Shown in pieces: positions 11,508 through 42,506 of a DNA stretch of 64,000 bases. Numbering within the stretch: position 1 is the stretch's first letter; each line of letters opens with the position of its first letter. The notes beneath the pieces were generated by a model. The model did no database searches. It saw only the letters and a program-made list of their open reading frames with translations, and was not told where the DNA came from. This stretch comes from Cristatella mucedo. Taxonomy: Eukaryota > Bryozoa > Phylactolaemata > Cristatellidae. The stretch covers positions 1 through 64,000 of the forward strand of contig WPIO01000377.1 of assembly GCA_009760855.2 (NCBI GenBank). Direction: 5' to 3'. The translations under genes and the position numbers were made by a program.

Positions 11508-11640
11508 TCCGCACTGGTTTGGTCCAGCGATTAAGGTTCTAGCCCAGACTGAGGGCTGCCCGAGGTCGTGGGCTCGAGCCCGGTGGCATACGTGAAGGAG
11601 CGAAACCCCTGAATCAAAAAGAGGGCTACTAAATAAGCCA
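11508..11640 (+). mobile_element. SINE-A, directly after SINE-B
   Basis: Box A (TGGTTTGGTCCAGCG-like) at about 11,514 and box B (GGGCTCGAGCCC) at 11,570-11,581 are clear. The 3' tail is degraded. It abuts SINE-B in the same orientation, giving a composite of about 270 bases. Confidence 0.75.
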
Positions 11641-20367: not shown

Positions 20368-20655
<288 letters not shown>

Positions 20656-20935: not shown

Positions 20936-21747
20936 TTAATATGCTGGAAAATGAAGCACATTAACAGATCAGTAATAATTAGGGCTGTTCCAAACTTTCG
21001 CTTCGGGGCTGAGCAGTGAGGCAAGTAGCGATTCGGTATTATGCATAATAGTGGTTGTGTGTTTCCAAATGCGAATGGTGGTGACGTGACAGCTGTTTCT
21101 TCAAACGCGAGTGCTAAAATGACTGAACTGAAGTTGCTCTTTCATTAACATAATACACATATCGGGTTTATTTCGCTGGTGAATGACACAAAATTACTCG
21201 CCAAATAACTGCTTAATTTTAGTTTTATTAAGTTAAATTAAATTAAATTTTGCTTACAGTTTTACATTTTTTAATCTTTTCTTTAGATCTATTCTGTACA
21301 CTGCATGTATTAAGCCGAATAGGTAGATGTTTAAATTACTTGTATTCGGCAGAAAAAAAAGCGAAAATTAACTAGTCGGTACAGCTCTAGTAGTATTTAG
21401 CAATGACAGTTTCTCGAGTAAGAAGCACAGTACAATTCGCAAGAAAGCGGCGATGGCTGTAAAGAGATGGCGGATGTCGAGCTTCCTTTTAAATTTCGTC
21501 GAGTAAATGGTTGGCTTGATGTAGATTGAGTTCCACGTTTCGGAACCATGGGTACTGTAGGTATGGTCTCAAAGGGGGCCGCGGACTGCACTGAAATCTC
21601 CTGCTAGGGTTGGGCCTAATCGCTGCATTGCACTGGAAAGAGGTACATCAAGGTGAAAACGGTTGTACACGCCAGAAGGACTGAGTGATACATTATATCA
21701 AGTGCTGTCGGAAGGTCCAACACAGAACTGGAGGACTCTACCTAGAC

Positions 21748-21934
21748 CAGCGGTTCTCAACCTGTGGGTCGCGACCCCTACGGGGGTCGAACGACACTTT
21801 CACAGGGGGTCGCCTAAGACCACCGGAAAACACGCACTTCCTCATTTGCAAACAACAATTTTATGGTCGGGGGTGGCCAAAACATGAGAAACTTTACCTA
21901 AGGGTAGCGGCATTAGGAAGGCTGAGAACCACTG
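21748..21934 (+). mobile_element. SPIN-like hAT MITE with perfect target duplication
   Basis: A 187-bp non-autonomous DNA transposon. The left end reads CAGCGGTTCTCAACCT and the right end, reverse complemented, CAGTGGTTCTCAGCCT, so 14 of 16 positions match. It is flanked on both sides by ACCTAGAC (21,740-21,747 and 21,935-21,942), a perfect 8-bp target-site duplication as made by hAT transposases. Inside are the GGGTCGCGACCC palindrome (21,766-21,777), CCTAAGACCACCGGAAAACAC, and GGCATTAGGAAGG near the right end. From memory, this layout matches the SPIN (Space Invaders) hAT MITE consensus with part of the middle deleted. No transposase is encoded, so it depended on one in trans. The orientation given follows the usual SPIN listing. 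Confidence 0.88.
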
Positions 21935-21942
21935 ACCTAGAC

Positions 21943-30100: not shown

Positions 30101-30330
30101 TTATGATTTTTTGGGATTTCATTTTTATTCTGCATTACATGATTGATTATTTGTCATTTTCAAGGTATGTCAATCTGTGATTCAGTTTTTAGCATCCCAT
30201 CTGAAGCCCCCTCCGAGCATCGAGTTTTGTACCTCGGATGAATATTTCTCTCACGTGACTCACGAGCATAGCCCCACAAAGACCACACTCTCCACAAATT
30301 ATTGCTATAAATATAAGTAAATAAATAAAA

Positions 30331-30469
30331 TTCATTGGTATAGCGCCACCAATAGAACTTTTATCTATATTCAACGTGCTTCTCGTATGCCATGGGGGCT
30401 CGAGCCCACGACCTCGGGGGGGACCTTGATCGGGGCGAGCACCTTAAACCACTTGGCCAAACCAGCGCT
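30331..30469 (-). mobile_element. SINE-A, minus strand
   Basis: Reverse-complement box B (GGGCTCGAGCCC at about 30,398-30,409) and box A (TGGTTTGGCCAAGTGG, 30,448-30,463). The terminal block lies at 30,339-30,380, with a (TAAA)n tail at 30,313-30,331. Confidence 0.88.
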
Positions 30470-30711: not shown

Positions 30712-30774
30712 AATTCAGGTGGGCTGTGCGAATGGTTGTCTTAGACACAACCATTCGCACAGTACTCCTGAATT
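30712..30774. repeat. long near-perfect hairpin
   Basis: AATTCAGG (30,712-30,719) pairs with CCTGAATT (30,767-30,774). After a symmetric 4-base mismatch, CTGTGCGAATGGTTGT (30,724-30,739) pairs perfectly with ACAACCATTCGCACAG (30,747-30,762). The loop is 7 bases. A second small palindrome, CCAATTTGCAATTGG, lies just upstream at 30,691-30,705. The size is compatible with a microRNA precursor or a foldback element. Confidence 0.85.
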
Positions 30775-42351: not shown

Positions 42352-42506
42352 CGAGCTGGTTTGGTCCAATGGTTTAGGTACTCGTCCCGACCAGGATCTG
42401 GCTGAGGTCTTGGGGCTCGAGCCTCGAGGCATATGTGAAGAGCCTAAATAGAGATAAGTTCTCTTGGGCGCTTTACAAATAAATTATATTCATATTTATA
42501 TATATT
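42352..42506 (+). mobile_element. SINE-A, intact layout
   Basis: Box A GAGCTGGTTTGGTCCAATGG at the start and box B GGGGCTCGAGCC at about 42,413. The terminal block AGAGCCTAAATAGAGATAAG...GGGCGCTTTACAAAT lies at 42,440-42,481, with an AT-rich tail to about 42,506. Confidence 0.9.

What the first reader, a model, noticed from the sequence alone, without database searches (positions are those of the whole stretch)
21740..21942. SPIN-like hAT MITE in an apparent invertebrate genome, with intact 8-bp target duplication
The 187-bp element has 14/16-matching terminal repeats starting CAGYGGTTCTCAR, an internal GGGTCGCGACCC palindrome, a GGCATTAGGAAGG block near its end, and a perfect ACCTAGAC duplication on both sides. 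These are the hallmarks of the SPIN (Space Invaders) hAT family as I remember it. That family is known from several tetrapods and a few invertebrates, including a triatomine bug and a pond snail, and is attributed to horizontal transfer. If the host is an invertebrate not known to carry SPIN, this is a new host record. The flawless target duplication, next to heavily decayed LINEs, suggests a younger insertion.
Basis: partly seen in the sequence, partly recalled or inferred. Interest (0 to 1): 0.85.

Follow-up and report, generated by a model that had tools for sequence, protein, structure and literature searches.

The report
SPIN transposon relic in lophotrochozoan genome
A 187-base stretch is a short, non-coding copy of the SPIN jumping gene, a family known for crossing between unrelated animals, and over a thousand such copies appear to sit in the genome of an unnamed invertebrate that probably belongs to the wider mollusc and worm lineage.

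Summary
Window 21748-21934 is a 187-bp inverted-repeat element, ends matching 14/16, with a perfect ACCTAGAC duplication. A search of the host genome (572 Mb) gave 2,017 first-look candidates; 40 were scored, at 84-100%. A longer copy, L132 (about 314 bp), also carries the interior of recalled rodent URR1A (156 columns, 86%). Duplications centre on TA. So it is a SPIN-derived non-autonomous hAT MITE. The host is an invertebrate, probably lophotrochozoan by its mitochondrial contig; species and class are unknown. No molluscan haemocyanin match appeared, an uncontrolled negative. Near-identity to tetrapod SPIN implies horizontal transfer, resting on a recalled reference. 'Younger insertion' fails: the window copy is 10.0% from consensus, the median of 20 other copies 9.25%. 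No transposase with SPIN ends was found; the Buster-type copies whose ends I read belong to another family, but only part of the candidates was scored. Known kind, probably a new host, unproven.

The parts
21748..21934 (+). SPIN-derived non-autonomous hAT MITE, 187 bp
21740..21747 (.). left target-site duplication ACCTAGAC
   Evidence: family target preference nnnTAnnn
21935..21942 (.). right target-site duplication ACCTAGAC
21748..21763 (+). 5' terminal inverted repeat, CAGCGGTTCTCAACCT
   Evidence: 14/16 with the 3' end
21919..21934 (-). 3' terminal inverted repeat, AGGCTGAGAACCACTG
21748..21833 (+). 5' SPIN arm; 81/86 columns identical to recalled SPIN; host consensus 85/85
21854..21934 (+). 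3' SPIN arm; 69/81 identical to recalled SPIN; host consensus 80/81
21834..21853 (+). short core between the arms (about 20 bp), left by internal deletion
   Evidence: the longer copy L132 has the URR1A-like interior here instead
21766..21777 (.). GGGTCGCGACCC subterminal palindrome

Best explanation
The element is a miniature, non-coding derivative of the SPIN family (hAT superfamily, Buster group as I recall it). It kept about 85 bp of the 5' end and 81 bp of the 3' end of a SPIN transposon and lost the transposase gene. It was moved in trans by a transposase that binds the terminal and subterminal sequence, cuts the element out and joins it to a new site with an 8-bp staggered cut that prefers nnCTAGnn, leaving the duplication seen here. 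It amplified in this genome to roughly 1,300 or more copies in a burst and then decayed to about 9% per copy. Shown: anatomy, duplication, target preference, copy family, star-like divergence, agreement of the host consensus with recalled SPIN ends, and one longer copy with the recalled SPIN interior. Inferred: mobilisation in trans, loss of the autonomous partner, arrival by horizontal transfer.
For: Recalled SPIN arms and URR1A were typed; the host consensus was built later from 38 genome copies and agrees with the arms at 85/85 and 80/81 bases, although the window copy differs from them at 16 aligned bases plus one inserted base. Longer copy L132 (about 314 bp, C11): 156 columns at 86% to recalled URR1A (E 7e-48), including an interior stretch that the 187-bp form lacks, score 105 against a maximum of 27 in 300 mononucleotide shuffles. 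Recalled MER5A aligns to the window element only at its ends, with scores inside the shuffle range. 2,017 first-look candidates, 40 scored. 338 exact copies of an internal 16-mer against 0 for the reversed control; 10 of 38 sampled copies carry it, so about 1,280 copies (biased sample). Duplications of 32 of 40 copies: T at position 4 in 57/64 and A at position 5 in 57/64 half-sites; 13 of 32 exact, 24 of 32 with 7 or more of 8 matching. Median pairwise distance 11.2% against 5.9% to consensus: star-like.
Against: No SPIN-ended transposase copy was found. Of 69 places examined (40, 9, 20), 68 are the 187-bp form or a decayed piece of it and one, L132, is longer but still too short to code for a transposase. 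The reference SPIN sequences are recalled, not taken from Dfam or Repbase. In a minority of copies the flanking octamers match poorly: 8 of 32 tabulated copies have 6 or fewer matches, and 5 of the 20 have 2 or fewer.
Confidence: 0.95

Rival explanations
1. A vertically inherited, unrelated hAT family that merely shares the CAGYGGTTCTCAA end common to Charlie/Buster elements.
For: The terminal 13-16 bases are shared by several hAT families; recalled MER5A matches there.
Against: The host consensus matches recalled SPIN over 165 of 166 terminal and subterminal bases, and L132 carries the recalled URR1A interior. Such identity across phyla is not expected for a non-coding sequence inherited vertically for over 500 million years.
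Confidence: 0.03
2. Contamination: the copies come from vertebrate DNA in the assembly.
For: SPIN is best known from tetrapods (PMC11614815, passages; PMC4054807, passages).
Against: Copies are spread over many contigs of up to 24.8 Mb. Flank composition (GC 45.7%, CpG ratio 0.81, GpC ratio 1.32) is close to that of the window. Most copies share a core not seen in the recalled tetrapod element.
Confidence: 0.01
3. The MITE is a SPIN derivative but was amplified by the transposase of another Buster-type family resident in this genome (ends CAGGGGTGTCCAA), that is, cross-mobilised.
For: 69 scored Buster-type transposase matches, 28-34% identical to recalled TcBuster. The 9 flanks from 6 of these that were fetched are 91.7-96.2% identical among themselves and carry a different terminal repeat. 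No SPIN-ended transposase found. Some of their sites also look like nnnTAnnn (by eye).
Against: The terminal repeats differ strongly beyond the first bases, and hAT transposases usually need their own subterminal motifs (recalled). Only 69 of 890 candidates were scored and 6 of those 69 had their ends read, so SPIN transposases may have been missed; the longer copy L132 shows that rarer SPIN forms exist here.
Confidence: 0.07

Closest known systems
SPIN (Space Invaders) non-autonomous elements of tetrapods, e.g. rodent URR1A / SPIN_NA (recalled)
   Same: Both arms: 85/85 and 80/81 bases identical between host consensus and recalled SPIN; the longer copy L132 also shares the interior of recalled URR1A, 156 columns at 86%; TA-centred 8-bp duplications.
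   Different: In 68 of 69 places examined the interior is replaced by a core of about 20 bp or is missing; the host is probably a lophotrochozoan.
SPIN in Rhodnius prolixus (SPIN_NA_12_RP, SPIN_NA_13_RP; PMC11614815, passages seen)
   Same: SPIN MITEs in an invertebrate, explained by horizontal transfer.
   Different: Rhodnius is an insect; the host here has a mitochondrial gene block that I recall as lophotrochozoan. The sequences could not be compared.
SPIN-like hAT of the snail Biomphalaria glabrata, about 1,000 copies (PMC5440852, passage seen)
   Same: Lophotrochozoan host, hAT with significant identity to SPIN, similar copy number.
   Different: The host here does not show the heterobranch snail mitochondrial order as I recall it; sequences not comparable with the tools at hand.
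SPIN in the pond snail Lymnaea stagnalis (recalled; no paper seen)
   Same: Lophotrochozoan host of SPIN.
   Different: Not testable here.

Membership tests
SPIN (hAT) | Terminal inverted repeats CAGYGGTTCTCAACCT | tested here: met
   Window 14/16 between its two ends; consensus ends CAGCGGTTCTCAACCT / CAGTGGTTCTCAACCT, 15/16.
SPIN (hAT) | SPIN-specific subterminal arms | tested here: met
   Against recalled arms: window 94% and 85%, host consensus 85/85 and 80/81. The reference is recalled, not from a database.
SPIN (hAT) | SPIN interior in longer copies | tested here: met
   One longer copy, L132: interior aligns to recalled URR1A. The genome-wide search for more such copies did not complete.
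SPIN (hAT) | 8-bp target duplication, TA in the centre (Buster group, recalled) | tested here: met
   Window ACCTAGAC 8/8; 32 of 40 copies tabulated: T 57/64, A 57/64 at positions 4-5.
SPIN (hAT) | SPIN transposase in full-length copies | tested here: inconclusive
   No transposase with SPIN ends. Buster-type transposases whose ends were read (6 of 69) have other ends. Of 75 weaker PF05699 matches, 20 had about 1 kb downstream read: no SPIN 3' arm, only one 17-base match in L108 at E 0.02 taken as chance. 69 of 890 and 150 of 766 candidates were scored.
SPIN (hAT) | Very high identity between distant hosts | tested here: inconclusive
   165/166 to a recalled tetrapod sequence; no named SPIN sequence was on hand. 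Scans of viral contigs, genome contigs, phages and plasmids gave no SPIN copy.
MER5A / other hAT-Charlie | Match beyond the terminal repeat | tested here: not met
   Only 22 and 15 terminal columns align; scores 27 and 25 against shuffle maxima of 28 and 26. MER5A is recalled; no other Charlie family was tested.

The most novel reading that the evidence does not exclude
A lophotrochozoan lineage not recorded for SPIN carries a SPIN MITE family of well over a thousand copies whose arms are virtually identical to tetrapod SPIN, beside rarer copies that keep the tetrapod-type interior, with no autonomous SPIN seen. This would make lophotrochozoans repeated recipients or a bridge in the SPIN transfers, possibly with amplification driven by a resident Buster-type transposase.
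Probability: 0.35. Interest if true: 0.65.

Novelty: new member of a known kind. Interest (0 to 1): 0.47.

Why it matters
SPIN is a textbook case of transposons passing between animals of different phyla. A further invertebrate host, outside the insects, adds a point to the map of those transfers. Once the host's ecology is known it makes the question of who carried SPIN testable: feeding, parasitism or a shared habitat with infected vertebrates. The copies here (about 9% diverged) can be dated against host neutral divergence and compared with the dates of the tetrapod invasions.

Tried and rejected
Host identity: 20 window ORFs against Pfam gave only one reverse-transcriptase fragment. Rfam on the window gave nothing; ARAGORN found no tRNA. 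Solenogaster molluscs were considered because of the mitochondrial contig and rejected: the mitogenomes in that paper are 15-17 kb, complete ones with 23-31% GC (PMC11488289, abstract and passages), against 21.0 kb and 44.5% here. Molluscan haemocyanin PF14830 gave no match, but none of the 14 control genomes rang either, so this is no proof of absence.

External SPIN copies: exact patterns in viral contigs and genome contigs, and blastn in phages and plasmids. The only hits were 10 viral contigs sharing 15-18 bases with the element at that place, taken as chance. A literature search for printed SPIN ends listed 33 papers; from titles and abstract openings none is about SPIN, and none was opened. 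Searches with SPIN plus lamprey, Lymnaea/Rhodnius, bivalve and Buster terms gave nothing that could be tied to this host.

Autonomous partner: (1) PF05699 gave 138 matches; 63 score 69 bits or more. 30 of those were fetched; they are near-identical copies of a hAT with other ends...GGTACAGCCCTA, in the 9 printed. (2) Recalled TcBuster protein gave a CAGGGGTGTCCAA family. (3) Patterns for SPIN arms not followed or preceded by the miniature core gave 6 and 3 sites; all 9 were read and are still miniatures, one (L122) without the core; L125 and L126 are 98.6% alike over 797 bp and so probably one locus twice. A genome search with its interior did not complete.

Rows dropped: the duplication table holds 32 of 40 copies. 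Left out are L012 (same insertion as the window's) and L018, L031, L032, L033, L037, L038 and L040 (best duplication needed a shifted end); of these L031 is 8/8 and L018 7/8 with the shift, the other five 4-6 of 8. L020 was kept although its right end was shifted by one base. The 38-copy consensus is drawn from copies most like the window copy and so favours low divergence; to offset this, 20 sites were picked by hand from the 100 listed of 338 exact 16-mer sites. Of these 20, 11 show 7 or 8 matching bases in the flanking octamers and 5 (L132, L138, L142, L144, L147) show 2 or fewer; L132, L134 and L147 align to the consensus only in part.

Full report
Observation. Both end patterns occur once in the window and in 0 of 100 dinucleotide shuffles at up to 3 mismatches. 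There is no second copy in the window.

What it is. It matched the SPIN arms at 81/86 and 69/81 columns, scores 145 and 102 against maxima of 27 and 29 in 500 shuffles, and MER5A only at its ends, within the shuffle range. The host genome was then searched: 572,011,866 bases in 688 contigs; the window lies on contig C307. There were 2,017 first-look candidates; 40 were scored, at 84-100%. All 40 were read. The consensus of 38, leaving out the window copy and its counterpart on C60, is also 187 nt long and agrees with the recalled SPIN arms at 85/85 and 80/81 positions. The window copy had departed from those arms at 16 aligned bases and one inserted base, so this agreement was a real test, although the reference remains a recollection.

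A longer form. Of 69 places read (40, then 9, then 20; at least two pairs are probably one insertion seen twice), 68 are the 187-bp form or a decayed piece of it. The exception is L132 on contig C11, about 314 bp long: its 5' arm is followed not by the short core but by an interior that aligns to the recalled URR1A interior and 3' end (156 columns, 86%, E 7e-48), and it ends with the SPIN 3' arm. It is too short to code for a transposase. It shows that SPIN with the tetrapod-type interior was in this genome, and it strengthens the assignment. Whether more such copies exist is open: the search did not complete.

Anatomy of the family. Tabulated duplications (32 of 40 copies; rows left out are told under Tried and rejected) have T at position 4 in 57 of 64 and A at position 5 in 57 of 64 half-sites; 13 of 32 are exact and 24 of 32 have 7 or more matches. 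This is the nnnTAnnn preference that I recall for the Buster group of hAT elements. CpG sites in the 38 copies are changed more often (78 of 833, 9.4%) than other sites (345 of 6,253, 5.5%). An internal 16-mer occurs 338 times exactly, with 0 in the reversed control; 10 of 38 copies carry it, which suggests about 1,280 copies (biased sample).

Age. The 38 best matches lie a median of 5.9% from consensus and a median of 11.2% from each other, as in a star-like burst, but they were chosen for likeness to the window copy. Twenty copies picked by hand from the 100 listed of the 338 exact 16-mer sites have a median divergence of 9.25% outside that 16-mer. The window copy has 10.0%, and 8 of the 20 are more diverged. 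The window insertion is therefore of ordinary age for its family. It is present on both C307 and C60. Five pieces of C60 were compared with the window: three are about 97% identical, one 86-94%, and C60:1-9500 has no collinear match; C307 is probably an alternative-haplotype contig (inference). An intact duplication is expected about 19% of the time at 10% divergence and does not show youth.

Host. COX1 was found on a 21,008-bp contig, C688, with TGA inside the frame. Read with code 5 (TGA=W, AGR=S), its long frames translate into recognisable mitochondrial proteins; names other than COX1 are by my own reading, not by a search. On one strand the order is nad1, nad6, cob, trnS2, nad4L, nad4, trnH, nad5, trnF, with trnT on the other strand (the tRNA calls come from ARAGORN in its mitochondrial mode, 44 predictions, clearly more than are real). 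I recall that block as the ground plan of molluscs, nemerteans and phoronids; arthropods and vertebrates differ. cox3-K-A-N-atp6-cox1-I-nad3 lie on the same strand and nad2 and cox2 on the other. The host is thus an invertebrate and most likely a lophotrochozoan. Molluscan haemocyanin gave no match, with no positive control. Flanks of copies have a composition close to the window's (GC 45.7%, GpC ratio 1.32), which together with the spread over many long contigs speaks against contamination.

Mechanism. The MITE has no coding capacity and must have been moved by a transposase in trans. None with SPIN ends was found. A young hAT family with intact frames has other ends. 69 scored Buster-type transposase matches (4 of 69 without stops) led, in the 6 whose ends were read, to another family with terminal repeat CAGGGGTGTCCAA: six 3' flanks and three 5' flanks. 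Of 75 weaker PF05699 matches, the downstream side of 20 was read, with no SPIN 3' arm. Nine SPIN-armed copies chosen for lacking the usual start or end of the core were all still miniatures. Either the autonomous SPIN has been lost or decayed, or it was missed, since only part of the candidates was scored; L132 shows that such pattern searches do miss longer forms.

Known and new. In print, as seen here: SPIN in Rhodnius (PMC11614815, passages), a SPIN-like hAT of about 1,000 copies in Biomphalaria glabrata (PMC5440852, passage), 385 SPIN elements in the painted turtle (PMC4054807, passages). Lymnaea is recalled. My searches found no paper that could be tied to this unnamed host, which is no proof that none exists. 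The finding is a further member of a known kind, probably in a new host.

Noticed in passing
L132 positions 37-251 and L150 (C11, about 1656836-1657150): A longer SPIN copy of about 314 bp that keeps an interior matching recalled URR1A, unlike the 68 other places read. Its number in the genome is unknown.
   Followed up: partly
L055-L084 (host contigs): A young hAT family, not SPIN: 63 of 138 PF05699 matches score 69 bits or more, many in frames of up to about 640 aa without stops. The fetched copies are mostly 98-99.9% identical to L060 and the 9 printed end in ...GGTACAGCCCTA; looks recently or still active.
   Followed up: partly
L112-L120 (flanks matches): A Buster-type family with terminal repeat CAGGGGTGTCCAA; 69 scored transposase matches, 4 of them without stops; flanks 91.7-96.2% identical; some TA-centred target sites by eye.
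   Followed up: partly
L089, L090, L091 (contig C688): Host mitochondrial contig of 21,008 bp, 44.5% GC, with a 2.1-kb exact direct repeat, a 1.8-kb exact inverted copy and genes on both strands.
   Followed up: partly
L086 (C166), L087 (C83), L088 (C549): Broken or partial COX1 stretches on nuclear-sized contigs, probably nuclear copies of mitochondrial DNA.
   Followed up: no
window 30712-30774: A 63-bp hairpin: 28-nt arms, 89% complementary, 7-nt loop.
   Followed up: no
window 20380-20530, 42356-42505, 30306-30468, 11511-11597: SINE-like repeats with a tRNA-like head (GGTTCGAG-type box, by eye) and a tail resembling the 3' end of the window's L2-like LINE (AGAGATTAAGTTCTCTGAGGGCGCTTTA then ATT repeats).
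   Followed up: partly
window 1-64000 (C307): The window contig (64,036 bp) is probably an unpurged alternative haplotype of C60: of five pieces compared, three about 97% identical, one 86-94%, one without collinear match.
   Followed up: partly
L122: A SPIN MITE copy whose two arms join directly without the 20-bp core.
   Followed up: no
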